Assembly (NCBI GenBank): GCA_964030785.1
Contig: OZ034969.1
Span: 58,501 to 122,500, forward strand
Direction of reading: 5' to 3'
Length of the DNA stretch: 64,000 nucleotides
Source of the DNA: Siderastrea siderea
Taxonomy: Eukaryota; Cnidaria; Anthozoa; Scleractinia; Rhizangiidae
Shown: piece after piece, positions 12,736 through 35,500 of the stretch
Numbering within the stretch: position 1 is the stretch's first letter
Layout: every line of letters begins with the position of its first letter
Made by a program: the position numbers and the translations under genes
The notes under the pieces: model-generated
Database searches by the model: none
What the model saw: only the letters and a program-made list of their open reading frames with translations
What the model was told of the DNA's origin: nothing

Positions 12736-14103
12736 GAAACTACGCACTGTAAAACTGTATGAAAGCGGTTCAACAGCTGCGTCTTAAGTTCTTTGCATTT
12801 ATTGAATGTTGGCTTATGCTGAGGACTTATTTTAAAAAAATTTGTCTCAAGACAACTGAGTTGAACAATTGATAGGATCTTTAAGTCGATTTAAGGAAGT
12901 CGACCCAGTGCCGTTAGTGTCAGCTGGATGCTTGCATGTATACACGCACGACTCTGCAAATCTCGCGTGGTTTGTTCAAATGAAACTGCCAGCGCTTGCC
13001 ACCTCGTCGTTTAGTCTATCGAACAAATTGGCTTTTATTTTGGCAAGTTTAGCTGAAGAAAAATGCCTAAAAAATAGCTAGTCGTGTGCATGACTCTTGG
13101 TGCAGACAACAAGAGGCCTCTTCAGTATCGATATAGCTATGTACTTTATATACATTACAGTTAACTGCCTTACGATTAGTGAACAACATTCCTGCACGTA
13201 ACCCGTCTATTCTGCAGTGACTCTACATCAGCCTTTGAACTGGTTCCTTAGATAGTGGAAAAGGCGCAAAAGAAATCAGCGAGTGGTAAGAGTGGATCGA
13301 GACTTTGAAGGGATGAGCAGTGGATCGCTTGGCATGCCGATCAAGGACAGCTCACTCGACTTGCCGAGCAAGGGCGGCTCATAAAAATTGAAATAAAACT
13401 TTCTCTGGTTGAAATTTAAAAAAAAAATCTATGAGCCTTCGACAACCGTCCTGTTGTCTTCAACGGATAGAATAAAGCGACTATGTAAAATGAATATTTA
13501 AAAAGTAGAGAAATAATAAATGAGAAAGAATGTAAAGTAAGAATGCTAAAAGTGTAAAAGCTGATGTTTGCTTAAAAGAATGCGGTACTGATTGGGGAAC
13601 AGGCATGAGTTGTTGTCAGCGTCAACAGTTTTTGCAGTGTGCCAAGACTCAAGGGTCTTGTACCCTCATGTACATCAGTTCAGATCAGATTTTAAACTCC
13701 GATATAATGAAAAAAAAAAACAAAACAAAACAAAAAAACAAGAAAACTAAGAAACAAAATAGCAAAAATGAGTAAAATTAAATGGATAATAAAATTGCAG
13801 CACCAAATGAACATAGATAGTCTCCTTAGCCCCATCATTGCCGAGAACGCCAAAGTAGAAAGCCAAAAGGGCAAAATTTGCAAGAAAACATAATCGACAC
13901 TAGATCGCTACGAGACGTACGTGATATGCACGCAATCCTATACGTTTCCCAAAATGAGAGAACCGCAAAATTCTGTTAACGTGCTTTGAGTTTTGTTGCA
14001 AAACTTCGACCAGAACTAGTTTAACTTATAAATCGCTTAAATTGATGGTTTATTTGGATGAAAACCGAGTTGCACGAGCGCTACGATCGGCCGAATAAAA
14101 GGG
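12736..14103. other. Intergenic, no gene recognised
   Basis: AT-rich sequence with an A-rich tract near 13710-13770. No conserved frame, transposon end or RNA gene is apparent. Confidence 0.5.
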
Positions 14104-15230
14104 GTCCGTTCCTCTATTTTTGTTCCTTTGTTCCTATAATTGAATTAGGAACAAACCAGCTGTTCCTTTTCTGAAACAAAGGAACAGCTCTTAAACCGTA
14201 CAAAGGAACGAATTTTGCACTATTCGGAACAAAAAAATACTGATTAGGAACCAAAAGGCCCCTTGTAATAACAAAGGAACGCATTGTTCCTAATCTGGCA
14301 AATCAGTTGGGCCTTTCTTGAGTAATTAGGAACCTGAGTTCCTAATAATTTCATTCCTTTTCACATAAAGGGAACGTATTGTTCCCAATAATGAAATCTC
14401 ATCGGAACCATTGTTCCTATTAACAGGATTAAGGAACCAACAGTTCCTATATTACTTAGTTCCTATTTCCAGTTAAGTTCTCCTTTAAGGTAATTGGGAA
14501 CACCTGTTCCCATCTACTGAGCTTACATAGCTCAACAAGGAACTGTTTGTTCCTAATCGCATCCCGGTTAGGAACATTTCGTTCCCATGTCTTAATTGGA
14601 CCTAACAAAAGGGGAACGTGAAGTTCCTTTGTTTGGAAATTAGGAACGTGCAGTTCCCAAATAAAAAGGAATTAGGAACAAGGTGGCCCTAAATAAAAGG
14701 TCACGTTTTGTTCCTATATGAACAAATGGGATCATATTGTTCCTATAGTAATAGGAACATTTTGTTCCACTTCAACACAATTAAGAACAAAAAGTTCCTT
14801 TGGAACAAAACGGTCCTTTTCATTAAAGGAACGTTTTGTTCCTATATGAACAAATGGGATCATATTGTTCCTATAGTAATAGGAACATTTTGTTCCACTT
14901 CAACACAATTAAGAACAAAAAGTTCCTTTGGAACAAAACGGTCCTTTTCATTAAAGGAACGTTTTGTTCCTATATGAACAAATGGGATCATATTGTTCCT
15001 ATAGTAATGGGAACATTTTGTTCCACTTCAACACAATTAAGAACAAAAAGTTCCTTTCGAACAAAACGGTCCTTTTCATTAAAGGAACGTTTTGTTCCTA
15101 TATGAACAAATGGGATCATATTGTTCCTATAGTGATAGGAACATTTTGTTCCACTTCAACACAATTAAGAACAAAAAGTTCCTTTGGAACAAAACGGTCC
15201 TTTTCATTAAAGGAACATTAGGAACAAAGA
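14104..15230. repeat. Array of GTTCC / GGAAC inverted pairs
   Basis: Dozens of GTTCC words and their complement GGAAC alternate every 10-25 bp in AT-rich sequence, often as short palindromes such as GTTCC..(6-20)..GGAAC. The left part (14104-14703) is irregular and the right part is a regular 128-bp tandem. The density is far above background and stops just before the recombinase promoter. A protein-binding array (recombination, replication or promoter control) is the natural reading, but this is inference. Confidence 0.85.
14704..15215. repeat. Four tandem 128-bp units
   Basis: Near-identical units start at 14704, 14832, 14960 and 15088 (each CGTTTTGTTCCTATATGAAC). They differ by only a few bases, so amplification is recent or maintained. 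Open frames of 85-89 codons across them exist only because 128 is not a multiple of three and all frames lack stops; they are not genes. Confidence 0.95.
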
Positions 15231-15339
15231 AGTCCCATTTACTCGAAAGCAATTGGAGTGGGCACGTTTGAACAAGGTTAGTATATTTGCCTTGCTATTG
15301 GTCAATCGGGAGTTTCGTACTCTAGGGACACAAGGATCG

Positions 15340-15346
15340 TATAAAA
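15340..15346 (+). promoter_or_regulatory. TATA box of recombinase gene
   Basis: TATAAAA lies about 60 bp before the ATG at 15400, predicting a transcription start near 15370. It sits about 110 bp after the GTTCC array. It supports 15400 as the start because an out-of-frame ATG at 15365 would lie at or before the cap site. Confidence 0.6.
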
Positions 15347-15399
15347 CAACTGGCAGGTAAGTGTATGCTCATTTCTCACTGACTCTCCTCCCAAGAAAG

Positions 15400-17178
15400 A
15401 TGAGTAAAAAGTGCAAGCAAGTTGACTGGGCTAAAGTTGCAAATGCTTTGACCAAACCGAAAAGACTTCACTTGGAGAAAGATGAATCCGATGGTCTTTT
15501 TCACTGCCCAATACAGGCGTGCGATCACGATGGATTTGGGACTCAAAGAGGCTGCAGGAAACACGTAACTCGAAAACACCGTTGGTTCTTTTACTTTGAT
15601 CAGAAACCAAGCAATGCAGAAATTGAGGCTAGTCAAGTTAGCGACTGTAATGAAAGCCCAAAAAAATCCAAGCCCACCAGCGCGAGCAAACCGATTCCAA
15701 CCTTTGAACCATCGGGTGCAATCGCTAAAGAATTCCTTTCTTGGCTCACCGGGAGTGGCGGGGGCAAGAGCGATCGCAAAGCTCCGCAAATTGTCAGCAA
15801 AAGCCTTAAGTTTCTCAGATTTTGTTGTGAAGACGAAGACGAACTGACTTGGAAAAATGTCGACTATAGCTTATGCTCTCCTAACCTCCTCTTTAAATTT
15901 GCTGACATGATGCAGGACACGTGGAATCTTGGACATGCTGGACGTTTAGGATACCTGGACGCCATTGGGGAGCTAGTGCAATTCAGAAAAGTCAGCGAAG
16001 GATTGTCAGATACAGTGGCTAGGGGATTAACTGTTACCGAGACGTACTTGAAAAGAGTTCGGCGAACAGTGTCTAAGATGATGAGATTGCAGTGGACCAG
16101 CGATCTGGACATTGATGTTTTGGAATCCAAAGGTCACTGGGCATCACTCGACGAACTACTGGAAGTTGTGTCTCATTACCTGCCTCGATATGAAGAAGTG
16201 CTTAAGAAATGCAGGGACAATCCAGGTAGTGTTTGCTCGGGGGATTTGTCGTTTGCCACCAAATTTCTAGCCGTGTACTTGTTCATTAAGGTAAAGGGCT
16301 CCCGACCCATGACGTACCAGTACCTCACTGTTGACATGGTTCGTGCAGCGAAAACAAACGGGGGATTCATTGACCAGAAAATGTTTAAAACGGCAGGTAA
16401 ATACGGATTTGACTCCCTCCTTTTAACCGACACTTACATGAAAGTTTTGGATGGATATATACATCACATTCGCCCTCTGCAGAAACCAGTTTGCGACTAC
16501 GTACTCCTGACGAGAAACGGGGGACAGCACAACAAGCTTGGAGAGCTGATGAGTAAACTGGTTTTTGATGCCATTGGAAAATATGTTCACCCGACGCGCT
16601 ACCGCCAAATCGTCGAGACGGCAAGTTCCAACCAGCTCAGTGCAAAAGAACAAGACGCAGTTTCAGAGGATCAAAAACACAGCTCGGTCGTAGCAAGAGT
16701 GCATTATCAAAAGCAACGATCCAGAGAGGTCGCAACAAAGGCCCGCCAATGCTTGGATAAACTACATGGCGACAAGGGGACAAAGTTGGAAGAAGATGTA
16801 ATTTCAAGACTGTCAGACATCTCGTCCGCCTCCTCTCAAGAGCATGATGCGCACCATCTGTCCGGCGGTTCTACAGAAGAAGTCGAAAGTGCAGAGGAGG
16901 CGTTGCCACTAAAACGGGAATCCAATTTGGGTGAAATTCCAAGACTTACACGCCAGCGCGCTTTCAAAGTGGCGAACATCGGTCGTACATGCAATAGAAA
17001 AAAAGCCCTCTTGTTCACCCAGGACGAAGACAGGTATCTCAAGGCCGGTCTCAAAAGGTACGGCTATGGTCAGTGGACAGCCATTCTAAGGGATTCCGAA
17101 TTTCATTTCCAGAAAGGAAGGTCTTCTGACTCACTGAAGAAACGAGCGGCGGCCAAGTTTTGCAAAGACACGCGCTAG
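15400..17178 (+). CDS. Tyrosine recombinase with zinc finger and Myb-like domain
   Basis: Single-exon gene of 592 codons starting MSKKCKQVDW. Residues about 35-59 form a C2H2-like finger (C-x4-C-x13-H-x4-H). A Ser/Lys-rich linker follows, then an N-terminal core-binding-like helical region (about 105-285). The catalytic region has the tyrosine-recombinase signature: Arg302 in GSRPMTYQYLT, Lys330 or Lys334, HPTR (His397, Arg400), His427 in QKHSS and the candidate nucleophile Tyr436 in RVHYQK. Residues about 537-587 form a Myb/SANT-like domain (FTQDEDRYL..YGYGQW), with the spacing of telomere-factor-type Myb repeats. The family (Crypton-like) uses DNA strand exchange through a 3'-phosphotyrosine. 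All catalytic positions look present, so the enzyme may be active. The zinc finger and Myb domain suggest it binds specific sites, possibly the adjacent arrays. No polyadenylation signal is obvious before the next gene. Confidence 0.8.
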   Translation: MSKKCKQVDWAKVANALTKPKRLHLEKDESDGLFHCPIQACDHDGFGTQRGCRKHVTRKHRWFFYFDQKPSNAEIEASQVSDCNESPKKSKPTSASKPIPTFEPSGAIAKEFLSWLTGSGGGKSDRKAPQIVSKSLKFLRFCCEDEDELTWKNVDYSLCSPNLLFKFADMMQDTWNLGHAGRLGYLDAIGELVQFRKVSEGLSDTVARGLTVTETYLKRVRRTVSKMMRLQWTSDLDIDVLESKGHWASLDELLEVVSHYLPRYEEVLKKCRDNPGSVCSGDLSFATKFLAVYLFIKVKGSRPMTYQYLTVDMVRAAKTNGGFIDQKMFKTAGKYGFDSLLLTDTYMKVLDGYIHHIRPLQKPVCDYVLLTRNGGQHNKLGELMSKLVFDAIGKYVHPTRYRQIVETASSNQLSAKEQDAVSEDQKHSSVVARVHYQKQRSREVATKARQCLDKLHGDKGTKLEEDVISRLSDISSASSQEHDAHHLSGGSTEEVESAEEALPLKRESNLGEIPRLTRQRAFKVANIGRTCNRKKALLFTQDEDRYLKAGLKRYGYGQWTAILRDSEFHFQKGRSSDSLKKRAAAKFCKDTR

Positions 17179-17330
17179 CTAAAAACTTACTGCTACTATA
17201 GAACTGGAATTTCAAATGCCGCCCTGGGAACCGCGCCTGCTTGCTTATGTGCCAATCAAACAGGCCTTCTTTGCGTGTGTGTTTCCCAAAGCATTTCGGG
17301 ATGTTGCGTGTCACTATTTAGCGCGCAGAC

Positions 17331-17337
17331 TTTAAAA
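17331..17337 (+). promoter_or_regulatory. TATA-like box of cyclin-like gene
   Basis: TTTAAAA lies 42-48 bp before the ATG at 17379, predicting a start near 17362. It is weaker than the other two TATA boxes of the block. Confidence 0.4.
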
Positions 17338-17378
17338 GCCGGGCCTCTTTTCCTGCTGAACACACACCCGCTAAGATC

Positions 17379-17744
17379 ATGGAGACCATTGTAGATAAAC
17401 ATCCCGCTTTGTCGTTGCAAGACATCAAGTTTGCTGGAGAGTTTATTCATGGCATTTGCGAGCCATTTGGTTTTCCAAAATCGACGGCCATGTTGGCAGA
17501 AAGCCTTCTTTGGAGGCATTTAAACAGAACAACGCAAAGGCAAAGGGCTACTCTGAGGGAGCTCATCTTGGCATGCCTTTTCATAGCCATTAAACTAGAA
17601 AGCAGCGACATTGCAAGAAATTCCTTGTTTATGGACGTTATTGCAACACCGGTTTCGAGGGATGTCATCATAGAGGAAGAACTCCGTGTGCTAGAGTCAG
17701 TAAATTGGAGGCCATTAGAACACGCGGACATGATTGGTCTTTAG
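17379..17744 (+). CDS. Small cyclin-box protein
   Basis: This is a 121-residue single-exon frame with a genuine ATG. Its helical pattern matches one cyclin box: a helix-1-like region at about 14-30 (IKFAGEFIHGICEPFG), a helix with Leu-Trp-Arg (40-50), LILACLFIAIKLESSD with Lys72 at the conserved cyclin Lys position, and VIIEEELRVLESVNW with a Glu at 99-101 matching the conserved CDK-contact Glu. The length equals a single cyclin fold without the C-terminal second box or destruction sequences. In cyclins this surface binds and activates CDKs; whether this one does is inference. It lies 200 bp downstream of the recombinase gene on the same strand, and convergent with the helicase gene. A cyclin inside a mobile block suggests steering of the host cell cycle, or it could be a captured host exon. 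Confidence 0.65.
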   Translation: METIVDKHPALSLQDIKFAGEFIHGICEPFGFPKSTAMLAESLLWRHLNRTTQRQRATLRELILACLFIAIKLESSDIARNSLFMDVIATPVSRDVIIEEELRVLESVNWRPLEHADMIGL

Positions 17745-17836
17745 TGTAGGAACCCACATAGTGATGGACTACTAATGCCTATATTAGGGGCTTCGTGAAC
17801 AATTAAACGCAAGGCACAATTGAGCAAAACCTGTCA

Positions 17837-17842
17837 TTTATT
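17837..17842 (-). terminator. Polyadenylation signal for helicase gene
   Basis: AATAAA on the minus strand lies about 135 bp after the stop codon of the helicase gene. On the plus strand a variant AATTAAA sits near 17801 after the cyclin-like gene, so the convergent transcripts probably overlap slightly. Confidence 0.45.
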
Positions 17843-17977
17843 CATCAAATTAATTATATTGAATCACACTTAATTAATTTATACTTGCATCATGTATTTG
17901 GCTGCTTGACTGGATGTACATGTAATTGACATAGCAAATGTAGCAAATGTTAATACATGAATCGTCGTGGAACACGT

Positions 17978-20900
17978 TTACTTAGAAAAGAAAAACTTCT
18001 TAATAGAGGTTTGTCCTTTCTGCACTTCGGAACACCCTCTCTTTCGCTGGCCTTTGCTGGTGGAGGTAGGAACATGTACTTGCAGTCCACACCACATGCG
18101 CGATGACGAATAATCCTCGAGTGGTCCGCTGTTCGTGGTGGGCGACGATTCCCGTACAAGACCGTCAGCCGTCAGTATCGATGGACTTGACGGCCCTTTT
18201 AGCTCCTCGTCAACAAAGCCACTTGAGTTTGGCGACTCGCACATTCCTGTCAATCAAATGGCAACAAATGAAAATGATAGATTTAGGTAAGCTAAGCACA
18301 AAGGGTGACGAGGCGGGGTGTTCCTTAAAACAATTTAACAGAGAGGCTTTCCTACGAAAGGTGACATTAACGGGGCTCACCCATTTCTTTCTCGCTGCTC
18401 ATCATCGGACCGCCTTCATCCTTGGTGCTCGGCGCGTGTTCTGTATAATAGAAAAAAAACACGATTTGTTTAGACAAACAGCGCAGGCGAAAAGTAAAAC
18501 TTTCAACGCACTCACCTTCCTCTGTGCACCAGGGCACTGGGTCGCTAAGGTTGGTTATCAGGTGCGCAAACTTGTCGTCGATGAACCCCCACCTGACGCA
18601 CGCCCGCCGCCTCTCCGCCACCGCCGTCTCGCACATTTTCGTTCCAGTGTTTGCGTGGTGGGTCATCAGCTTGTGCGACAGGAGACCCATGTAATCATTG
18701 AACGCCGTCGTGTCGAGTGCCATGCCGGTGTTCAGTTTACGCACGCACTGGAATAGGTCGGTTTCGGTGCTTTTCACCCATGCGTTTTCGAATGCCTGTC
18801 GTGCTTTCGTTTCCCTCTCTTTCATCTCATCTTTTAGGCGCGCCAGCCTTACGCGGTGGATTTCCTCTTTCAACACTTGGGGCAGTTCGGTTTTTCCGTC
18901 CTTGGGAAGGAGCTCCGCCAATTCTTTCTGCACGCCCGAGTCGACAAGGGCCTTTTTTCGGCGCTCGTGTTGTTGGTCGCGTTGACGCCTGTACTCTTCC
19001 ATTGCTTCTGTCTCCGTCCCAAGCAAGTGTTGCAGCTGTCTGTAGCGCAGCGAGCCCTTTGCGCAGCTTCTGAGCTCTCTTCTAATGGACGCTATATACC
19101 CTTCCTCCTCGTCGGACTCCGCCTCTGCTGCAATGTCTCGGACTTCTCCCTATAAGACAGACAAACAAATGTCACACAAACGTGATTGTGAAGCAGTGGT
19201 GCCTATTGCAAGTATCAAAACGTAACAGCTCACCAACTCTCGACCGTCATTGACTTCAGAGTCTTCTAGGACGAGATGCCTCAAGGCCTCTTTTTCTTCC
19301 TCTTTTAAGATGCCATCTTCGCTCTCGCTGTCATTGTCGCTTTCACTTTCGCTCTCGCTTTCGTCAACTTCGTTTTCTAGAGGCGCTTTTGCGTTTATCG
19401 CGGCCCAGACGATGCAATCCATTGGATGCCTTTTAAGCCACTCGGCGGCCTTCTTTTTGGGTCTCGGCAGGCTCGTGAACTTGTATACTTGAAGACGTTT
19501 CTCCATGGCTCTCTTGTCTTTTTCAGAGAAGTCGAGCTCTTCTTGGGCCGTGATGATCATTGGGCATTTGTTGATGAATGGCTGGGCGGTCTTGTATTTC
19601 ACGTCGTATGCTGCGAATCCCCCCTGAGTTATCGTTTTCCAGTCGTCGATTTTGAGCAGTGACGTCGTGGCTTCGTCTAGAAAGATCACCTGCGTCTCGG
19701 GCGTTATCATTGCCTTGTTAAAGGCGCCTTGTTTCGTGATAGTTGCCACTCTGCTGTAGTGGATGACTCCCAGTATGGGTAAGAACAAGCTGGTCTTTCC
19801 ACTGTTTGAGTCGCCAACGAGGCATGGCACGCGATCTTTATGTTTCTTGCTGTGGTGCTCTAGTAACTTCAGGAAATAATGGCAAAACGACTGTATTTCC
19901 GGGCCCGACAAGCTGTTTTCCAGAATTTCTCGAAAATATCTTGGAATGGGCGGAGTACTGGGGTCGTATTTGCAGTATGCTCTAGGCGTGATTCGTCCTA
20001 CGTCAGATTCGCTGATGGCGTCTTCGATGAAAGTGCGCCTCTTTACAGACCAGCATTGGCCTTCATCCACTTCGATAAGGTCGTAATTTACTTGAATGGG
20101 CTTGATTACTTCACAGCAAGGTTCGGATATGATATCGATGACTCTCTTCATGTCGTTTAAAAGCCGTGATTTGAAGCTTTCGTTTGACGCTAGGGTGTTG
20201 ACAAATTCCCTTGGACTGCATTTGAGAGTATAAGTGTACCTTGCTCGATCTACCTTCTTAAAAATCTGCCCTCTGTGAAGCGCGTATCCCAGCTCCTTCA
20301 TCGCTATTCCTAGGTCGTTTATAAGCACCGTGGTTGTGTTGGACAGGTGATGCGGCCTTATTTCCTCTGAGGTTCCTTGGGACGCTGGCACTGTCGGTGC
20401 TTGGTCAAATCCCACTCTGTCCGTGACAAGCTTGGTCTCCATTTTGGACATGGCGTACTCTAAACTCTGCTGAAAGGACTTGTTTACAAGTACAACCCTG
20501 ACGACCTTCTCTGAGACACTAGGAAAACGTTCGTTCTGCGAGCTAATTTGACTGTCGGATTCCTCTTCCATTCCTGGCACGAAATTGCGAACCTCTTGTT
20601 TGTATAACCACGTGAAGCTGTCGTTAACGAGATCTTGCGTAAATGCATTCTTGTGATCTTTTATTGTATGGCAAAGAGCATCGATAGCTTGGAACTCCTT
20701 TCTTTCGACGCAAGGCACCTTTCAAAGGGAAAACGAGAAAACGCGTAAAAATGAAATCTTAATTGCCAAACAACTCCGTTGCGCTGAGCTATACATTTTG
20801 GGCTATTGTGTTTACTTGTGGAGCTTTCCTTGAAATGTTATTTTCCGCGTATAAGCTCCCGCTCCCCCCCCCCCCCCCCCTCGCACACACACAGGAGGCG

Positions 20901-21893
20901 GTACGCACCTATCGGAAGGCTTAACAGGATTGGCTGAGAAGACAAAAGAACAAACAATAAAACAATGACCCTAGCCCTTAAAACAATAGAGGTGCGTGAT
21001 ATAGGAAGCCAATAAAATTACAGGTTCCGAAGAGGTGCGTGGCTTATGACACACAGACGCACACTCAGTTGGAATAACAATGGTTAGATAGTTCCAAATA
21101 CCTGATTGGCCGTGGCTTCTACGCCACATTCGAGGAGCGCTCTTTGCACAATTAATGGATTCGCCGGTGCGCCATTGGGTGTGGTCATAGCTATCCAATA
21201 AGAAATGCCTGGGCGAAGTTTCTTGTCCACTAATAGTTTGTTTTCGCTAACCCATGTCGTTGTTGTGTTCGAAATTGCTTGACTTCCCTTCATTGCCCCA
21301 TCATCGCCACTCTCGTCGTCGCTCGCGCTTATTTCGAAATTAGCTTCGACTGAAGTTTTTGCCGGTTTCCTTCTTCTTCTTCCCGGCCCACTTGCGGAAA
21401 TAGCGCTGAAGTAGAACGCTGTGCATTTCGTTCCTGCAACAGTAAAACAATTTATTGTCAAACAGTCCATTCAATGTACGCTCGAATTGGTGGTCAACTA
21501 ATTGCAACAAAAGCTTTTTCGACGATTTCATACTACATTTAGTCCCAAAATGCAAATGATTCTAATAATTCCGAAGTATAACCGTAGATTGACTGGACTA
21601 AAAAAAAATGCACGCGGAATATCGACAGATTTGATGGTTTTTAAAAGCATAATTCGAAAGATTTAAGAAATCTAGCATTTCAACTTACCCGAAATTGCAT
21701 TGTCACAAATGTCCCTTGTGCGGCACACGTTCCTCCAAGCGTGTTCTAAGCCTTCGCTTATGTCCGCGTACGCTATTGCATGTATGATGTTGCACTTCCC
21801 TACCACAATCGGGGAAAGGTAGCACAGAGCAGCGTTTTTAATTTTAGTGCTGCCAAGTTGCCTTGCTGGCTGCGTAGCTTTGCTCGCTGACAT
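17978..21893 (-). CDS. SF3 helicase replication protein with C-terminal PIP box, six exons
   Basis: Exons in transcript order are 21689-21893, 21102-21433, 19234-20718, 18516-19149, 18381-18440 and 17978-18246. They have GT-AG borders and matching phases and give 994 codons. The N-terminal 430 residues are unrecognised. Residues about 481-489 are Walker A (GDSNSGKTS), 523-529 Walker B (VIFLDEA), and 563-573 the sensor-like CPMIIT segment, followed by a candidate Arg finger (KRAMEKRL). This is the compact superfamily 3 layout of parvovirus NS1, papillomavirus E1 and related replicases. An acidic Ser/Glu tract (about 631-650) and a coiled, charged region follow. The last 11 residues contain QTSIKKFF, a textbook PCNA-interacting PIP box (Q-x-x-I-x-x-F-F). 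The role inferred is origin melting and recruitment of host PCNA and polymerase. The start is the first ATG after a strong TATA box. No HUH nickase motif was convincingly found. Confidence 0.8.
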
Positions 21894-21933
21894 AACGCTA
21901 CGGGGAATGCGAGGCGCTATCCTAAAGGTCCAC

Positions 21934-21941
21934 CTTTTATA
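21934..21941 (-). promoter_or_regulatory. TATA box of helicase gene
   Basis: TATAAAAG on the minus strand lies about 45 bp before the ATG at 21893, predicting a start near 21910. No ATG intervenes, so it fixes the start reading MSASKATQPA. Confidence 0.65.
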
Positions 21942-22243
21942 GACAAACGGCGTGAAATCAAAACAGTTACCATATATGGGCATTGGTACCACCACACGTC
22001 ACAAAGAAGAGGTCGTTGTATCGCAGCTTGCTTGCTGGAATTTGTTAAATGAATTCTCTGGTAAAAACAGCTCGTTATTTCTCAATTGCAATAATTGGGT
22101 GTGCGTTTGCATTTGAATGCATGACAACGTGGGAAAATTACGGCACCAAGCAGCAAAATGAGAAATGTTTCCCCAAAGGGGTCATTAGAAGGTTCGGAAT
22201 TTTTTCACTTATTCCATTGTCAAACAAGTCATACAGCATAACA

Positions 22244-22530
22244 AAACGGAGGTTACATAACCCCGCCTCACCCATCAATCGCTTTTCTTACAATGCATTG
22301 TCAAGGAGCTGATTAGTGGATGAATCTGAAGAAACGCGCTAATAATTGCATATTTCTAAATTCAGTGACACAAAGGCGTGTTTGAAGACACCGTAAAACG
22401 GAGGTTACATAACCCCGCCCCACCCATCAATCGTTTTTCTTACAATGCATTGTCAAGGAATCCGAAAAAACGAGCTAATTACTGCATAATTCTAATTTCA
22501 GTGACACAAATGCGTGTTTGAAGACGACTT
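22244..22530. repeat. Two tandem copies of a ~150-bp unit
   Basis: The segment beginning AAAACGGAGGTTACATAACC is repeated at 22395 with about 90 percent identity, including GTGACACAAA..GCGTGTTTGAAGAC at the end of each copy. It lies between the helicase promoter and the large inverted repeat. No coding content is supported. Confidence 0.8.
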
Positions 22531-22559
22531 AAAGATTGTAACATTATTGATTTAAATCA

Positions 22560-25500
22560 TAGTCTCCTTAGATCCCTTCAAATCCTTATTATCTTCAGTT
22601 CTAGAAACAATCGTCTGCTTTCAGTATTGGATTTTGGTTCGTATAAAGGAGATAAATGCGAAAAATAAGAAATAAGGATTTGAAATGTTTCCTTGGAATC
22701 CTTATAATCCTTATTTTCCTTGTCTCTGGAAACAATCTTCTGATTTCAGGGTATTCTTTTTTATTCATGCAAAGAAGGGAAATACGGAAACTAAGAGAAC
22801 TAAGGTTATATGATACCCCCTTAGAATTTTGAAGTTTTATTCATGCAATGGAGGAAAATACGGAAACTAAGGAAACTAAGGATATATGATACCCTTCTTA
22901 GAATTTTGAAGTTTTATTCATGCAATGGAGGAAAATATGGAAACTAAGGAAACTAAGGATAATATGACCCTCCCCTTTTACAAGTTTGAATTTTTATTCA
23001 TGCAATGGAGGAAAATATGGAAACTAAGGAAACTAAAGATAATATGACCCTCCCCTTTTACAAGTTTGAATTTTTATTCATGCAATGGAGGGAAATATGG
23101 AAACTAAGGAAACTAAGGATAATATGACCCTCCCCTTTTACAAGTTTGAATTTTTATTCATGCAATGGAGGGAAATATGGAAACTAAGGAAACTAAAGAT
23201 AATATGACCCTCCCCTTTTACAAGTTTGAATTTTTATTCATGCAATGGAGGGAAATATGGAAACTAAGGAAAATAAGGATAATATGACCCTCCCCTTTAA
23301 CAAGTTTGAATTTTTATTCATGCAATGGAGGGAAATACGGAAACTAAGGAAAATAAGGATTGAAAATGTACTCTCCTTTGATTCCTTAAAATCCTTATTT
23401 TCCTTAGAAAATAATATTTTTAAATATATCCATGGGGCTATATGAAAGACCCCCCCTTTGAATTTTTATTCATGCAATGGAGGAAAATATGGAAACTAAG
23501 GAAACTAAGGATAGTATGACCCTCCCCTTTTACAAGTTTGAATTTTTATTCATGCAATGGAGGAAAATATGGAAACTGAGGAAAATAAGGATAATATGAC
23601 CCTCCCCTTTTACAAGTTTGAATTTTTATTCATGCAATGGAGGAAAATGTGGAAACTAAGGAAACTAAGGATAATATGACCCTCCCCTTTTACAAGTTTG
23701 AATTTTTATTCATGCAATGGAGGAAAATATGGAAACTGAGGAAAATAAGGATAATATGACCCTCCCCTTTTACAAGTTTGAATTTTTATTCATGCAATGG
23801 AGGAAAATGTGGAAACTAAGGAAACTAAGGATAATATGACCCTCCCCTTTTACAAGTTTGAATTTTTATTCATGCAATGGAGGGAAATACGGAAACTAAG
23901 GAAAATTAAAGGATTTAAAATATGCTCTCCTTTGATTCCTTAAAATCCTTATTTTCCTTAGAAAATAATATTTTTAAATATATCCATGGGGCTATATGAA
24001 AGACCCCCCTTTGAATTTTTATTCATGCAATGGAGGAAAATATGGAACTAAGGAAACTAAGGATAATATGACCCTCCCATTTTACAAGTTTGAATTTTTA
24101 TTCATGCAATGGAGGGAAATATGGAAACTAAGGAAAATAAGGATTCAAAATATACTTTCCTTTGATTCCTTAAAATCCTTATTTTCCTTAGAAAATAATA
24201 TTTTTAAATATATCCATGGGGCTATATGAAAGACCCCCCTTTGAATTTTTATTCATGCAATGGAGGAAAATATGGAAACTAAGGAAACTAAGGATAATAT
24301 GACCCTCCCTTTTAACAAGTTTGAATTTTTATTCATGCAATGGAGGGAAATACGGAAACTAAGGAAAATAAGGATTGAAAATGTACTCTCCTTTGATTCC
24401 TTAAAATCCTTATTTTCCTTAGAAAAAATAATAAAAATTATTATTAATATCATTATTATACATTAATATAATATATAAATATTTTAATATATTAATATAT
24501 TAATATATTAATATATTAAATTAAATAAATTTTAAATAAATTTTATTATTTTTTCTAAGGAAAATAAGGATTTTAAGGAATCAAAGGAAAGTATATTTTC
24601 CATCCTTATTTTCCTTAGTTTCCATATTTCCCTCCATTGTATGAATAAAAATTCAAACTTGTAAAAGGGGAGGGTCATATTATTCTAGTTTCCTTAGTTT
24701 CCATATTTTCCTCCATTGCATGAATAAAAATTCAAACTTGTAAAAGGGGAGGGTCATATTATCCTTAGTTTCCTTAGTTTCCATATTTTCCTCCATTGCA
24801 TGAATAAAAATTCAAACTTGTAAAAGGGGAGGGTCATATTATCCTTATTTTCCTTAGTTTCCATATTTTCCTCCATTGCATGAATAAAAATTCAAACTTG
24901 TAAAAGGGGAGGGTCATATTATCCTTAGTTTCCTTAGTTTCCATATTTTCCTCCATTGCATGAATAAAAATTCAAAGGGGGGTCTTTCATATAGCCCCAT
25001 GGATATATTTAAAAATATTATTTTCTAAGGAAAATAAGGATTTTAAGGAATCAAAGGAGAGCATATTTTCAATCCTTATTTTCCTTAGTTTCCGTATTTC
25101 CCTTCATTGCATGAATAAAAATTCAAACTTGTAAAAGGGGAGGGTCATATTATCCTTAGTTTCCTTAGTTTCCATATTTTCCTCCATTGCATGAATAAAA
25201 ATTCAAACTTGTAAAAGGGGAGGGTCATATTATCCTTATTTTCCCTAGTTTCCATATTTCCCTCCATTGCATGAATAAAAATTCAAACTTGTAAAAGGGG
25301 AGGGTCATATTATCCTTATTTTCCCTAGTTTCCATATTTTCCTCCATTGCATGAATAAAAATTCAAACTTGTAAAAGGGGAGGGTCATATTATCCTTAGT
25401 TTCCTTAGTTTCCATATTTCCCTCCATTGCATGAATAAAAATTCAAACTTGTAAAAGGGGAGGGTCATATTATCCTTATTTTCCTCAGTTTCCATATTTC

Positions 25501-26402
25501 CCTCCATTGCATGAATAAAAATTCAAACTTGTAAAAGGGGAGGGTCATATTATCCTTATTTTCCCTAGTTTCCATATTTTCCTCCATTGCATGAATAAAA
25601 ATTCAAACTTGTAAAAGGGGAGGGTCATATTATCCTTAGTTTCCTTAGTTTCCATATTTCCCTCCATTGCATGAATAAAAATTCAAACTTGTAAAAGGGG
25701 AGGGTCATATTATCCTTAGTTTCCTTAGTTTCCATATTTTCCTCCATTGCATGAATAAAAATTCAAAGGGGGGTCTTTCATATAGCCCCATGGATATATT
25801 TAAAAATATTATTTTCTAAGGAAAATAAGGATTTTAAGGAATCAAAGGAGAGCATATTTTCAATCCTTATTTTCCTTAGTTTCCGTATTTTCCTCCATTG
25901 CATGAATAAAAATTCAAAGTGGAGTATCATATTAGCCTTATTTTCCTCAATTTCCGCATTTCCCTTCTTTGCATGAATAAAAATTCAAAATGGAGGGGGG
26001 GGGTTATCATATTAGCCTTATTTTCCTCAGTTTCCGTATTTCCCTTCTTTGCATGAATAAAAATTCAAAATTCAAAATGGGGGGTATCATATTAGCCTTA
26101 TTTTCCTTACTTTCCGTATTTCCTTCCTTTGCATGAATAAAAATTCAAATTTGTTAAGGGGGTTGGATCATATTAGCCTTAATTTTTTAGTTTCCGTATT
26201 TCCCTCCTTTGCCTGAATGAAAATCCAACTCTGTTAACGAGAAATAAGGATTTTAAGGGTTGTAAGGATAAAACATTTGGGATTCTCATGTTACTTTTCT
26301 TCCGGATGTCTCTCCTTTGGCTGAATGAAAATCCAAGTCTGTAATTATTAGATTGTTCCTAGAAACACGGGAAATAAGGATTTGAAGGGTTCCAAGGAGA
26401 GC
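22560..26402. repeat. 3.8-kb inverted repeat of 80-bp tandem units
   Basis: The left arm (about 22560-24436) has tandem units of 80 bp starting near 22843, 22921, 23001, 23081, 23161, 23241 and 23321, each holding TGCAATGGAGG, GGAAACTAAGGAAA and GACCCTCCCC. Three copies of a second unit with TATATCCATGGGGCTATATG interrupt them. From about 24541 to 26402 the same units run in reverse complement, and the outermost words also mirror each other (TCAAATCCTTATT against AATAAGGATTTGA). The centre falls near 24,485. The arms could form a cruciform or, single-stranded, a huge hairpin. The frames seen across it are products of the repeat, not genes. Confidence 0.9.
24424..24552. repeat. AT-only core of the inverted repeat
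   Basis: About 120 bp of almost pure A and T with repeated TTAATATA words separate the two arms. The arms meet it with mirrored CCTTAGAAAAAATAATAAAA and its complement. It looks like a low-melting-point centre, as in replication origins; that role is inference. Confidence 0.8.
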
Positions 26403-26680
26403 ACACTTGGACTGCTCAAGTTCCTTACTACACATTGCTGATTTCTCATTCAGGGAACAAATGGTCCTCTTTGATAAGGAACACACACTTCTATAAAATG
26501 TCTCCGTTTCCGCGTTTTTCGATTCTGCGCTGCAAATAAATCTTGTCAGGGAGTAGAAATTTGATCATTCGCTTGAATTAAAGAACTCGATTTTCGGCCA
26601 GAAATTTGCTTCGCTTGTTCTGGGACGTGTTCGAGTGAAAAGGAACGGGAATTTTGGGAAACGATACGTACTGAGTACCT

Positions 26681-26877
26681 TCTTTCCTTCCTTCCTTCCT
26701 TCCTTCCTTCCTTCCTTCCTTCCCTCCCTCCCTCCTTCCTTCCTTCCTTCCTTCCTTCCTTCCTTCCTTCCCTCCCTCCCTCCTTCCTTCCTTCCTTCCT
26801 TCCCTCCTTCCTTCCCTCCCTCCCTGCTTCCTTCCTTCCTTCCTTCCTTCCTTCCTTCAGTTCCTTCCTTCCTTCCT
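26681..26877. repeat. (TTCC)n microsatellite
   Basis: TTCC/TCCC tetranucleotide run of almost 200 bp just outside the right array. The Pro/Ser/Phe-rich and Lys/Glu/Gly-rich frames across it are artefacts. Confidence 0.95.
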
Positions 26878-29505: not shown

Positions 29506-32500
29506 ATGGCAACTGACGACAATGAACGTAGCAGCTACGATGCCGTTTCTAATGCCTTCCCCAAAGAAATCTGCTATATAGACGCACAGATTAATAGTCT
29601 GTTTGACGTTCGTCTTCACCCTGGGTTAATTTCCGTAAATCTGCACTGCAATAATATTTCAGTGATAGAAAACCTCGAAAGGCTGAAGAGCCTTAAGCAT
29701 CTCGATCTGTCATCCAATCATATTACAAGAATGCAAGGACTTAGTGGTTTGAAGAGTCTCAAGACACTCAACTTATCCTGCAATGAGCTACAAATTGTCG
29801 AAGGACTCGAAAATATGAGGTACGGCTTGTTCTTGCTCGACATGCTATGGTTAAGTTTGGTGAGGGGAGGGTAAGTAGAAAGAGTGTACACCATCCCCGT
29901 TCTGTTACATCCTTCACAGAAATTCATTTATCATGACTTTTTAAAGTCATAAATAAAAAGAATCTAATCATTTATCTTTAATTTTTTTTTTAACATTTAG
30001 CGCAGTCCTTTATATTCAGCATTGAATTCGGACTTACACGGTGAATAAATAAATAAATAAATAAATTGATTGTCATTTCAAATAGTGTTGTAATGCGTAT
30101 GTACCTTATTCTCACTTAATTTCGCGATTTTTTTCATAATCATACCTATAACAAAATTCTCGAACCTGATTGGCTATCACCAGCCATGATTTGAGCATTA
30201 TTGGGACAGTGTAATTGGACAGTGTACGCGTCATGCCTAAGTAATTGGACAGTACGCATCAGAGCGCGTGCTCTAATGGATCAGTTACACTTGAATAAGT
30301 TCTTTTTTACGTAACTCGCAAACAAAACTGTTGTTTATTCCTTCTCCAGTACGTTTTTTTCCTTTTTCTTTCTCGAATTTTGTTATAGATATGATTAATT
30401 GGTAACAGGACTTCGTGTCCTCCAATTCGGTCTGTAATCATACTCGTGATTAAACAAATCGGACTCCCGCTACGCGGTCGTCCGATTTCGTTAATCACTC
30501 GTATGATTACAGACCGAATTGGACTCCACTCAGTCCTATTACCATTATAAATCGCAAAAATCGCAAAATTTAATACTCGCGAAATAAAGGACACGCGAAG
30601 ATTAAAATCGCGAAATTTAATACTTTATAATATCAATAAAATAATGAAATTCAAGCTGTTACTTTATTACAGTTATTACTGTTATTCCAGCATGTCTCAG
30701 CTTCATGTTTAGGAGTTTTTTGTTTGATTTTGTCCATCAGTTATCTTCCACTGCATCACTCTCGCTGTCTGAGGTTTCCTCTGCCACTATCTGTTACTTA
30801 GACTGTGGAATACCTTATGCTTTGTTATGTTTAGCTTGTTTGGTTTGCTATTGTTTATGATGACAATCATATTAAATATGTTGCTACAGCTCTGAGGTCA
30901 CAGCTACATATTGAAGAATAGAAAAAAAATCGCAAAATTTAATACACTCCAATTCTAATTTCCTCTCAAAATCGTCAAATTTAATACTCGCGAAATATGG
31001 CTCTTGATTTTTTGCAAAATTTAGTGAGAATAAGGTAATAATAATTACGTTCGCTATCTCAATTTCGATTGGCTACAAGCACATTGCTAATTCCAGGTGG
31101 CACTATTCTTAAATTTATTTTTGTTTCATTCTTACAGACAATAGTTTTTTATGAATATGGAAGTGATGCTATTTTTCAGACAACACAGTCAAAACTCTTG
31201 TAAGCGACCACCTCGGGAATTCAGAAAAGTGATCGCAAGTTGAGCTGGCCGCTTACACTCTCATAAGCAACCACATGATGAAACAATAGAGGGTGGCCGC
31301 TTACGAGAGCTTTTACCAGGCATAACTAATCGATGATCAATGACATCAATTGGTAATCAATGAGTAATCGATGGGTAATCAGTTGATTGGTCATTGATTA
31401 TTGGCAATGATCAATGAGGAATTGATGACTAATCGAAGCCCAAAAATTTTGTGGCCCATCGATTACTCATCGATGACATTGATTACTCATTGATGTAATT
31501 GATTACCTATTGATGTTATTGATTACTCATCGATGACAATTGTTTAAAACAATTTTTTAAATTTAAACTAGTGAGCAGCACTCTGCGAACTTGTAGTTGT
31601 AAGACTTGTTTATTCTCCTACGCGTTTCGTCTAACTATCGTAGACTTCTTCAGGGAGTTTTACAAACAAATGCTAAATGCCTGTAGGCGTGAGAGTTATT
31701 TGGGGGCCACGGTTTTAGCTAAAACCGTGACCCCCCAGGGTAGAGGATCGGAAATTCTCAACAAACCTAAGACGTTTGAACAATTGTCGGAGGAGGGAAG
31801 AGAGCCCTACTGAAGGATAAAGAACTGGCTACAGCAAGAAGATCCCATAGCAGATCTGAGAGGAAAGTTCAAAGGTACATGAATCACTTATGAATACGTG
31901 TAATTCATCAATTCGCAAGAACTATTTCCGTTGCACAATCCATATGCCCGACCGTCATTATTCAATTACGTCGTTCCTGGAAATGTTTTTTATGAGATGT
32001 TTATTCATCAGTCCTCTTCGCTTTACATATAAATAAATAAATACATGTTCAACTAAATTTATCTAGTTTTATTTTGTTTTTGCTTAGAGGGAAAAGGAAA
32101 CGAGCGGCTTCATCAACTACAAATACAAGAACCAAATTTTCCCATCTGCAAAAAATGGCCCTTGAGGCCCTGTTTAAAGAAAGCAGATACCCGTCTTCAA
32201 GGAGTAATAGAAGAATTTGCTAAGTTGAACAACCTTGACGGGGCAACCGTCAAGGTTTGGTTCAATAATAAAAGACAACGAGATACGGGGGAACAAAATA
32301 CAAATGAACATAGGCCTTCTGACACTTAACACATTGTAAGCTTAATTGTAAGCTTAAGCTGGATAAAATAAAGCTGGAAACATCTGTTTACATTTAATAA
32401 GTTGTTTTTATTTTGTTCTTATTCGCCAAATACGGTTTTCAGCCCCGAAATGATATCGATGAGTAATGAATGAAATCAATGACTAATCAATGCAATCAAT

Positions 32501-35500
32501 GACTAATCGATGCAATCGATGTCTAATTGGTGACCCAAAATTTTGTGGCCTATCGATTAGTCATCGATTACTCATTGATTATCGGCAATAATCAATGACT
32601 AATCAACTGATTACCTATCGATTACCTATTGAATACTCATTGATTTCATTGATGGCATTGATGTCATCGATTAGTTATGCCTGGCTTTTAGTATAAAAGC
32701 TTGGGATATGTTAATGGTTACTAATAGTGTTGTAGTAATAATTTTAAATAGTTTATTTTTGCGTATCACAGAATATGTTTGCAAATGTACAGGTCAATGA
32801 ACCATTAGCGCTTATGTTATGTATGACTCAAAGAAGTCCATGCTTTTATCAAAGTGATTACTGAGTGGTCACTTATGAGAACATGAAAAACAAGGGTAAA
32901 CTCCAGTTGGAAATCCACAAAAGTGGTTGTGGCCACTTATGGGAGTGTTCGCTTATGAGGGTTTTTAATTACAGATTTAAGTGACAATTCAAACGGGGTT
33001 TCACAATGCTGGTCATTACTAGGGCTGGTTGCTTATGACCATGGTCAAAAGAAGAGCTGCGACTGTAGTTCTTTATACATGCAATGAAAAGACTCACTTT
33101 TTATGCAAGCTTTTCGAAGAACTTTTTTAAAAGAAGTTTGAGCAAAAATGGAATTATATATAGTCAAAAGTAAAATGTTAAGTTCTGAAAAACAACTGTT
33201 TAGATTAGGTTTTGTAAAATTTTACTGGAAACTTTTAGGGTGAGCAAAAGGTTATAAGCATAAAAGTTGTTTAAAAGTTGGTCGTTGGGTGTTTCATTTC
33301 CTGTGTGCATTGTTGTCTTTACAAATGCTCAAGTAAGTGGACTTGGCTTTCACATGATAGCAAGAATTATCAAGGCCTTGGTTTGTGTTATCTGCCAAAG
33401 CAGAGGTTTCAGTGGATAATACAAACTGAGGCCTTGATAGTTGTTGCTATCATGCTCAACCTCATCCAATAGTTGTCAATTATTACATGAAATAGATGGT
33501 AGTGATATGTGCAAAAAACTAAAATCCCATCCATGCAGAACAGTAATACTGCTTAACTGTCACAGTACAACTATTATGAATTAGGATATTCGGAACCTTG
33601 AAATTGGACTATGATCTAAGGATTGAGCAGTATGACTTTATATCTCAAACCAGTGATGTCTCTAGAACCCTTACTTTCATGTTTTTTGTTAGTAGAGAAG
33701 GAAGCTCCAGAAGAAAGATTGGTACTTAAGTTTTCTTGTAACATACATGGCATGAAACTAACCTAAGTTTTGACACACAACTGCATGCTCATTATATTGA
33801 TGTTGTGTTGTAGTCTGTGGTGGCGGTTGGAATTTTTCAGGATACATAACCATTTTTTTGCATTTACTAAAACTATTTTAATAAATGCAAAAAAGGTTGT
33901 TTTTCTCTTTTTATTGTTCTTGCAGGAATCTAATTAAGCTTGACTTGTCCTATAATGTGATTAAGAATCTCTCAGGTTTAAAGAAGCTTCATGGACCTGG
34001 ATTTAGCTTGCACACCCTTCGTCTCCATGGAAATCAACTCAGCTCCCTAGATCATGTGATCAACTCTATTGCTGGGTGTAGAATGCTTATACATTTAACA
34101 TTGTCACAGTATGGAGAAGCTAATCCTGTGTGTGAGATACCACATTACAGATCTAGTATACTCACAGCATTGAAAATGCTTGAAATATTAGATGGACTTG
34201 ACCGGAATGGGCAGCCAGCAGCAACAAAAGACAATGTGTTCAGTATTCCAGGTAAAATACTCGTAATACACTCTTGCTAAGACACTGGATTTATAGATGA
34301 TTTTGGCATTTTTTGTTTGTTTTATCTTAACAATGTCAATGCCATGTTGTTATTTTGAAGAAATGGACGACTATTTAGAGTACCTGAGATCAGAAAGTTC
34401 TTGTGAGAGCCCTGTGGTAAGTAAAACAGCACTGAGAAAGTAACGTATACCCAGGTTGGCTTTTACTGGAGTAGTAGCAAGTGGTATAGTAGTACTGACC
34501 TAATGGTTAGGGTCCTCCTTCCACTCGCTTTATTCGTGTTTTGTGGTCCTAAGTTCATTCCTCTCTTGGTAGAAATCCTACACAGGATCTTTCTATGATC
34601 CTAACTAGGATTTATAGTATCCTCACCTATCTGGGTTCCTCTTTTAAGGTGGCTCCATACAGTTTCTCATCAGTTTCAACAGACAAATATACATAACTTT
34701 TTTGATGATTTTCAGGACATCGATTTACATTTCACTAGAGAAAAGCTACAAAAGCAACTAGCCTAGCCTTTATACTTTTCAAAAAAGTCACAATTTCTGG
34801 GCCTGGCCCGTTTCCATGGCAACCACTGATATAGTTGTTTGGCTCAGTTTTTAAGCTTACCCAGTTTCTTTATGTCATTTCTTGGTTTTTACACGGTGAA
34901 TTTTCGCTATTTTTGTCGTAAAGATGTTGTCGTTTGAGAAGTCTTAGCTGGCAAAGCTGTGAGAAATTTTGTACATAAGTTTTGCCAGAATAGTAAATTT
35001 CCGTTTTCGACGATTAATGCAGAAGTGTATGTATAAAAATTACTCTTACTTTAATATGACTGAAAAACACAAAAATCCTACAAATGTTCCAATTTTAAAA
35101 AAATTTCACCGAGTGGAACACACGCAATTAGCGTTTAAAAATGTCTCAAAACCCACCTTTTTTCTTCACGTTACCAAAATAAGAATTGTCCAAGTTACGG
35201 GGTTGCGCATGCTCATGATTCCTTTTGCGTGGACGAGCGTGGACAGCACGCCGGTAAGCGGTAGAAAAGCTTTTCTAGAGCTTTTCTTTCAAAAGAACAA
35301 CATTTTTCTAGACAACTGCTTTCCTTTACTGTAAAGGATCCATGTGACCAAAAAATTCGCAAAAATAAAGAAAGAAACGAACAAACAAAAAAGAAGAAAA
35401 TTTGTACCGATTCGCGATATTAAAACTCGAACGAAGCCGCCACTTTATTGCCAGCAGCAAAAAATTTCCTTTAAAGTTTCCAGAACGCGGCAATCATTAA

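What the first reader, a model, noticed from the sequence alone, without database searches (positions are those of the whole stretch)
14104..26480. Apparent new class of large mobile or virus-like element: tyrosine recombinase + cyclin + SF3 helicase between two repeat arrays
Three intact genes with unrelated but complementary roles (strand exchange, cell-cycle box, replicative helicase) are arranged convergently, each end guarded by a long, structurally distinct repeat array. The element genes have TATA boxes and clean frames while other elements nearby are decayed. Cryptons carry only a recombinase; parvovirus-like elements carry only a helicase replicase. I know of no described family that joins these three. 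The unity of the block and its ends are inference.
Basis: partly seen in the sequence, partly recalled or inferred. Interest (0 to 1): 0.92.

Follow-up and report, generated by a model that had tools for sequence, protein, structure and literature searches.

The report
Coral integrating replicon with three genes
The stretch is a mobile DNA element that recurs in this coral-like genome, often in head-to-tail arrays; it joins a cut-and-join enzyme, a cyclin and a virus-type DNA helicase, a combination I did not find described, and it appears to copy and insert itself without being a virus.

Summary
A block at 13936-26665 carries a tyrosine recombinase (+), a cyclin-box gene (+) and a five-exon SF3 helicase gene (-). 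It recurs, whole or in part, at four other loci examined; four of five copies keep the left end and four of five the right end, at the same base.

The ends carry 13-bp inverted arms. Where elements lie head to tail the arms meet as 13 bp - 8 bp - 13 bp, the layout of loxP/FRT-type sites. The genome has 51 perfect sites of this pattern (12-base arms searched) and none of the reversed control; 49 of 50 listed have an 8-bp spacer. One array holds seven recombinase copies 9.0-9.3 kb apart.

Of 74 recombinase places, 53 have a convergent helicase within 6 kb; 43 have a cyclin within 3 kb downstream, including 37 of 38 in the window's family. Helicases end in a PCNA-binding-like motif (62 of 70). 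No capsid, polymerase or reverse transcriptase was recognised.

Most likely this is an integrating replicon: a circle copied by host machinery, favouring S phase through its cyclin, inserted by the recombinase, sometimes in microsatellites or beside another element. Recurrence and shared gene content are shown; circle, replication and cyclin function are inferred.

The parts
13936..13955 (+). Left end: part of the 8-bp spacer (TCCTATA) and the 13-bp recombination arm CGTTTCCCAAAAT
   Evidence: Homology among copies begins here; 40 genomic places, 37 from base 1; meets the right arm in head-to-tail junctions
14104..15225 (.). Left repeat array of GGAAC/GTTCC motifs, including four 128-bp tandem copies; probable protein-binding array
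   Evidence: 59 motifs in 13936-15260, shuffle mean 1.6; 44.5 per kb against about 1.5 per kb in the window outside the element; motif also dense upstream of the recombinase in the 58% family, 18 in 888 bp
15400..17178 (+). Tyrosine recombinase, 592 aa: N-terminal C2H2-like finger (by eye), core with R302, K330, H397xxR400, H427, Y436, C-terminal Myb/TRF-like domain; TATAAAA at 15340
   Evidence: conserved residues; Xer/Cre/lambda-type fold, low-confidence model; TRF Myb
17379..17744 (+). Single-box cyclin, 121 aa; nearest solved relatives cyclin E1, then viral cyclins; TTTAAAA at 17331
   Evidence: lies 200-207 bp after the recombinase match in most copies of the window's family; dN/dS 0.10 between window and L041
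17978..21893 (-). SF3 helicase gene, exons 21893-21689, 21433-21102, 20718-19234, 19149-18516, 18246-17978; 974 aa; C-terminal QTSIKKFF (PIP-box-like); TATAAAA at 21941
20895..21048 (.). About 155 bp in intron 2 present here but absent from the C1, C7 and C14 copies
   Evidence: Alignment breaks; the C3 copy lacks the whole region
22563..26400 (.). Right-hand palindrome made of 80-bp repeats in two opposed arms around an AT-rich centre (24442-24545); candidate replication origin (inferred)
   Evidence: palindromes of other sequence lie near the right end in L041 (7456-8448) and in the second element at C1 (29845-30429 of the 40-kb stretch)
26649..26665 (+). Right end: 13-bp arm ATTTTGGGAAACG plus two spacer bases
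   Evidence: 9 genomic places, 8 to the last base
26666..26877 (+). Flanking DNA: 12 bp, then a (CCTT)n microsatellite

Best explanation
A capsid-free, self-mobilising integrative replicon of an anthozoan genome. SHOWN: a discrete 12.7-kb element with fixed ends, three genes in convergent order, several genomic copies in different flanks, FRT/loxP-like 13-8-13 sites at head-to-tail junctions, arrays of near-identical units, and exchange of the left module (end, array, recombinase) between elements with very different helicases. INFERRED: the recombinase joins the two ends into a circle with a 13-8-13 site; the helicase loads on that circle (perhaps at the right palindrome), and host polymerases recruited through a PCNA-binding tail copy it; the cyclin E-like protein biases the cell towards S phase; the recombinase then inserts the circle at DNA matching part of its 8-bp spacer, sometimes a microsatellite or the end of a resident element, which builds the arrays.
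For: Common ends in copies with different flanks; 40 left and 9 right ends. 51 perfect junction sites, control 0; 49 of the 50 listed have exactly 8 bp between arms though 6-10 was allowed. Arrays: seven recombinase copies 9.0-9.3 kb apart on C11, three units 8.0-8.5 kb apart on C7. Recombinase residues R302, K330, H397xxR400, H427, Y436 conserved in at least 90% of 24 aligned sequences, with Xer/integron/Cre-type folds leading the structural lists. Co-occurrence. Helicase fold of D5/SaPI5/giant-virus type. PIP-like tail in 62 of 70 homologues of 730 aa or more among the 120 listed, against 6 of 1721 background 30-mers. Cyclin profile hits cyclin E1 at 8.5e-7 and viral cyclin at 3.4e-4; cyclin dN/dS 0.10 for one pair. 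Six left ends run in phase out of (TCC)n, (CCTT)n or (CCCT)n, control 0, and the C7 array of the 58% family sits in ACC/ATC repeats that match its spacer GCCACCAG.
Against: No circle, expression or replication data. 21 of 74 recombinase places lack a detected convergent helicase within 6 kb, so many copies are deleted, non-autonomous or carry a helicase missed by the two queries. No palindrome arm of 40 bp or more was found in the two 58%-family units tested, so the palindrome cannot be a universal origin; one of three control stretches of the window also gave short inverted matches (up to 147 bp). Helicase dN/dS among close window-type copies is 0.65-2.3 on few changes, which does not show selection to keep it. 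Only 6 of the 24 left ends that are not at a listed junction have ten pyrimidines in front, and the window's own left flank is not such a repeat, so microsatellite targeting is a tendency at most. Microsatellite junctions could also arise by expansion of the spacer. The recombinase model is of low confidence (pLDDT 62.6, pTM 0.35), no Foldseek match reached E 0.001, and no Pfam recombinase family matched. 22 of 50 listed junctions are not within 6 kb of a listed gene. Arrays might also be enlarged by unequal crossing-over.
Confidence: 0.75

Rival explanations
1. Crypton-like cut-and-paste transposon: the recombinase alone moves it, and the helicase and cyclin are captured passengers without a role in copying.
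For: A 5.1-kb relative next to the C1 copy shares the end site and shows only a (frame-broken) recombinase among ORFs of 80 aa or more; 21 of 74 recombinase places lack a detected helicase.
Against: The helicase gene keeps the same order and orientation beside recombinases 61-100% identical to the window's, and its C-terminal motif is kept in 62 of 70 homologues; the cyclin has dN/dS 0.10 between window and L041. Passengers should decay.
Confidence: 0.13
2. Remnant or reduced form of a DNA virus (Polinton-like virus, virophage or E1-type virus) that has lost its capsid genes.
For: Helicase fold is D5-like and matches giant-virus and virophage helicases; some Polinton-like viruses carry a tyrosine recombinase, and some a primase-SF3 helicase (PMC4642659, passages read); herpesvirus cyclins are among the cyclin's solved relatives.
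Against: In whole 9.3-kb and 8.5-kb units, ORFs of 100 or 110 aa or more are these genes, ORFs overlapping them, or repeat ORFs; no relative confirmed in four IMG/VR scans, which depend on short patterns.
Confidence: 0.08
3. Arrays are ordinary segmental or tandem duplications of host genes, not a mobile element.
For: Several arrays have nearly constant unit length.
Against: Single copies on different contigs with the same ends and different flanks; a perfect site precedes each of the seven C11 units.
Confidence: 0.02

Closest known systems
Crypton DNA transposons (Kojima and Jurka 2011, PMC3212892; passages read)
   Same: Moved by a tyrosine recombinase; circular intermediate proposed; recorded from Nematostella. 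The C7 copy shows TCCT at both ends, like the short direct repeats of Cryptons.
   Different: That paper describes animal Cryptons as having no C-terminal domain and no terminal repeats, and Cryptons as encoding a recombinase, some with a C48 peptidase. Here there are a Myb domain, 13-bp inverted arms, an SF3 helicase, a cyclin and arrays.
Polinton-like viruses and virophages (PMC4642659; passages read)
   Same: Some encode a tyrosine recombinase, some a primase-SF3 helicase; some are integrated in eukaryotic genomes.
   Different: They share a capsid and packaging-ATPase module; none recognised here, and 8.0-9.3 kb units leave little room for one.
Yeast 2-micron-type plasmids with Flp/FRT, and Cre/loxP (recalled)
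   Same: 13-8-13 recombinase site, circular replicon using host polymerases, inverted repeats.
   Different: Those are not normally chromosomal; different recombinase sequence; no SF3 helicase or cyclin.
Bacterial integrative elements and SaPI/PICI phage satellites (recalled; SaPI5 helicase matched)
   Same: Integrase plus D5-like replicative helicase in a small integrating element.
   Different: Prokaryotic; packaged or conjugated; no cyclin, no PCNA tail.
Fungal Starships (recalled; PMC12506042 seen only in a search listing)
   Same: Tyrosine recombinase-driven eukaryotic element.
   Different: Usually much larger cargo elements; captain domain DUF3435 not matched here.

Membership tests
Crypton | Tyrosine recombinase as the only mobility enzyme | tested here: met
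   Conserved R, K, HxxR, H and Y; Xer/Cre fold, low-confidence model; no transposase or integrase family matched among the six proteins scanned
Crypton | No terminal inverted repeats; short 4-6 bp terminal direct repeats instead (none found in animal members) | tested here: not met
   13-bp inverted arms at the ends. In favour of Crypton: TCCT at both ends of the C7 copy; the window copy shows no such repeat
Crypton | Animal members: recombinase only, without C-terminal domain | tested here: not met
   Myb/TRF-like C-terminal domain; linked helicase and cyclin
Crypton | Recombinase groups with known Cryptons in a tree | not tested
   No named Crypton sequences were at hand
Polinton-like virus or virophage | Capsid proteins and packaging ATPase | tested here: not met
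   ORFs of 90 aa or more in the window element, 100 in L041 and 110 in L038 are recombinase, cyclin, helicase, overlapping or repeat ORFs, apart from a few short unassigned ones; Pfam and PHROGs give no capsid for the six window proteins scanned
Papillomavirus/parvovirus-like endogenous virus | SF3 helicase with origin-binding or HUH nickase domain, and a capsid gene | tested here: inconclusive
   Helicase part matches PPV_E1_C weakly; no HUH or E1 DNA-binding domain matched, but exons 1, 2 and 4 gave no Pfam match at all and exon 5 was not scanned; no capsid recognised
FRT/loxP-type site | Two inverted arms of 11-13 bp around a 6-8 bp spacer | tested here: met
   49 of 50 listed sites have an 8-bp spacer; the size rule is quoted in PMC3212892
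FRT/loxP-type site | Recombination at the site by the linked enzyme | not testable with these tools
   Needs biochemistry
Starship | DUF3435 captain recombinase | tested here: not met
   No DUF3435 match at E 1 or below; that this defines Starships is recalled
DIRS-type retroelement | Reverse transcriptase with the recombinase | tested here: not met
   No Pfam match of that kind in the proteins scanned and no unassigned ORF of fitting size in the ORF lists

The most novel reading that the evidence does not exclude
A separate class of animal mobile DNA: a chromosomally integrating plasmid that encodes its own replicative helicase tied to host PCNA and its own G1/S cyclin to push the host cell into S phase, and that swaps recombinase-plus-end modules between lineages. 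It would be a non-viral parasite that manipulates the animal cell cycle to copy itself.
Probability: 0.45. Interest if true: 0.95.

Novelty: new variant of a known kind. Interest (0 to 1): 0.87.

Why it matters
Tyrosine-recombinase DNA elements of animals are known mainly as recombinase-only Cryptons, and how they multiply is, to my knowledge, unsettled. Here the recombination site, the enzyme, a replicative-type helicase with a PCNA-type tail and a cyclin are all readable in one element that also forms near-identical arrays, so circle formation, replication and cell-cycle control by a non-viral animal element become directly testable. Named database hits in Porites and Nematostella (recombinase) and in Acropora, Montipora, Oculina and Desmophyllum (helicase) suggest wide occurrence in hexacorals.

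Tried and rejected
IMG/VR scans with recombinase and helicase, single and as alignments: no confirmed relative. PHROGs and NCBIfam: nothing useful beyond a weak cyclin match. PDB sequence search with the helicase and its alignment: no meaningful match, so fold comparison was used. Literature: nine searches, no paper found that joins the three genes; the library lacks most subscription papers and all bioRxiv preprints. Contig-length coincidence between the recombinase and helicase hit lists (two exact matches, 81,048 and 831,635 bp, among 120 by 120 listed) is only weak support from other assemblies. Empty-site test and genome-contig scan not run. A first BLAST run used the wrong record and gave nothing. 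A first splice model had wrong exon edges and was replaced. A telomere link through the TRF-like Myb domain was considered; no telomere repeats were sought.

Rows dropped before counts: 17 of 91 rows (second, C-terminal pieces) were left out, giving 74 places. From all 84 rows were kept, some being pieces of one gene. From, 49 of 106 rows were added; the rest overlapped rows or were second pieces. Of 73 cyclin rows, only the 55 of 300 bp or more enter the cyclin-helicase count. All genome lists are lower bounds by the tool's own statement.
Full report
WHAT IS THERE. The window lies in an 831-Mb genome of 402 contigs (G000:C4:58501-122500). Named database hits come from stony corals and a sea anemone (Porites and Nematostella for the recombinase; Acropora, Montipora, Oculina and Desmophyllum for the helicase), so the host is very probably an anthozoan; its species is not known to me. 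Three genes stand as described: recombinase and cyclin on the plus strand, helicase on the minus strand. The helicase is a five-exon gene of 974 codons with GT-AG introns, supported by homologues of 730-912 aa.

ENDS AND MOBILITY. Four other places with the same helicase (96-97% identity) were fetched with about 20 kb on either side. The homologous block covers window 13936 to 26665 or parts of it. Left ends are present in the window, C1, C3 and C7; all four begin TCCTATACGTTTCCCAAAAT or one change from it, and their left flanks are not homologous beyond pyrimidine repeats in C1 and C3. Right ends in the window, C1, C7 and C14 finish GGGAAACGAT, with one change in C14; C3 is cut short there. 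The left 175 bp were found at 40 places, 37 of them from the first base; the right 166 bp at 9 places, 8 of them to the last base. The C3 copy has lost most of the recombinase, and the C14 copy carries a foreign recombinase side.

RECOMBINATION SITE. In the C11 array (L041) one unit ends and the next begins as ATTTTGGGAAACG-ATCCTATA-CGTTTCCCAAAAT. The C1 copy is followed by two related elements through junctions of the same form, the second with one arm changed at a single base. A genome scan for 12-base arms with 6-10 free bases between them gave 51 sites and none for the reversed control; of the 50 listed, 49 have 8 bp and one has 9. 28 of those 50 lie within 6 kb of a listed gene of these families; the other 22 I did not examine. 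The 58% family has a related junction in the same register with less perfect arms, TATTTGAGAAATG-GCCACCAG-TATTTCACAAAAC; a second junction of that array is lengthened by ACC repeats.

TARGETS. Six left ends have ten pyrimidines in front (control 0), and all six run in phase out of (TCC)n, (CCTT)n or (CCCT)n into the TCCT of the spacer. By my count 24 of the 40 left ends are not at a listed junction, so this is 6 of 24; the window's own left flank is not such a repeat, though a CCTT repeat lies 12 bp beyond its right end. The C7 array of the 58% family lies in an ACC/ATC repeat. This suggests that spacer-target homology helps choose the site; it is a tendency, not a rule.

GENE LINKAGE. Recombinase: 74 places (91 rows, 17 second pieces dropped); helicase: 84 rows with the window's protein and 106 with the L041 protein; cyclin: 73 rows, some of them fragments. 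All are lower bounds. With the window's helicase alone, 35 of 74 recombinases have a helicase within 13 kb (about 0.2 expected), 31 of them convergent. With both helicase queries, 53 of 74 have a convergent helicase within 6 kb downstream: 24 of 38 in the family at least 93% identical, 25 of 29 at 66-71%, 4 of 7 below. Cyclin within 3 kb downstream: 37 of 38, 6 of 29, 0 of 7. Of 55 cyclin matches of 300 bp or more, 37 have a convergent helicase within 6 kb.

MODULE EXCHANGE. Against the window, the C11 unit is 98-100% identical in 100-base steps from 15261 to 17460 (recombinase and the start of the cyclin), then falls to 94, 90, 74 and 49%; the left end and array match at 95-99%. Its helicase is only about 29-49% identical. 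Recombinase dS is 0.02 while cyclin dS is 0.43 between the two. So the left module appears to have been exchanged recently between old helicase lineages.

REPEATS. GGAAC/GTTCC is packed upstream of the recombinase in both families examined, which suggests a binding site for an element protein. A right-hand palindrome is present in the window type, in L041 and in the C1 neighbour, with different sequences; none was found in the two 58%-family units tested.

JUDGEMENT. That this is a mobile element with these genes I hold at about 0.95; the full replicative circle model at 0.75. By mobility enzyme it stands nearest to Cryptons, but it does not meet features that the Crypton paper gives for animal members (recombinase only, no C-terminal domain, no terminal repeats). 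I file it as a new variant of tyrosine-recombinase DNA elements; if helicase and cyclin are shown to act as inferred, it deserves a class of its own. The statement that I found no description rests on nine searches of an open-access library.

Noticed in passing
C1:31829780-31834905 (in L023 and L024): Relative of about 5.1 kb with a frame-broken recombinase and no other recognised gene, joined to the window-type copy by a perfect 13-8-13 junction; it has its own 586-bp palindrome.
   Followed up: partly
G000 C2:17850591-17867605 and C10:40027330-40038165: Further arrays of junction sites 5.67 kb and 5.42 kb apart, each ending about 2.5 kb from a divergent helicase; no listed recombinase lies nearby.
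   Followed up: no
G000 C12:22676947-22685003 and C14:21811998-21819873: Recombinase-cyclin units about 6.1-6.3 kb apart without a detected helicase: possible non-autonomous arrays.
   Followed up: no
window 50997-51486: Five tandem copies of a 97-bp unit, 81-91% alike.
   Followed up: no
window 30143-32686: Dispersed repeat; parts of it are 80-92% identical to C1:31841769-31842718.
   Followed up: no
window 60404-61016: Repeat with an 88% copy at about C1:31810355-31811009.
   Followed up: no
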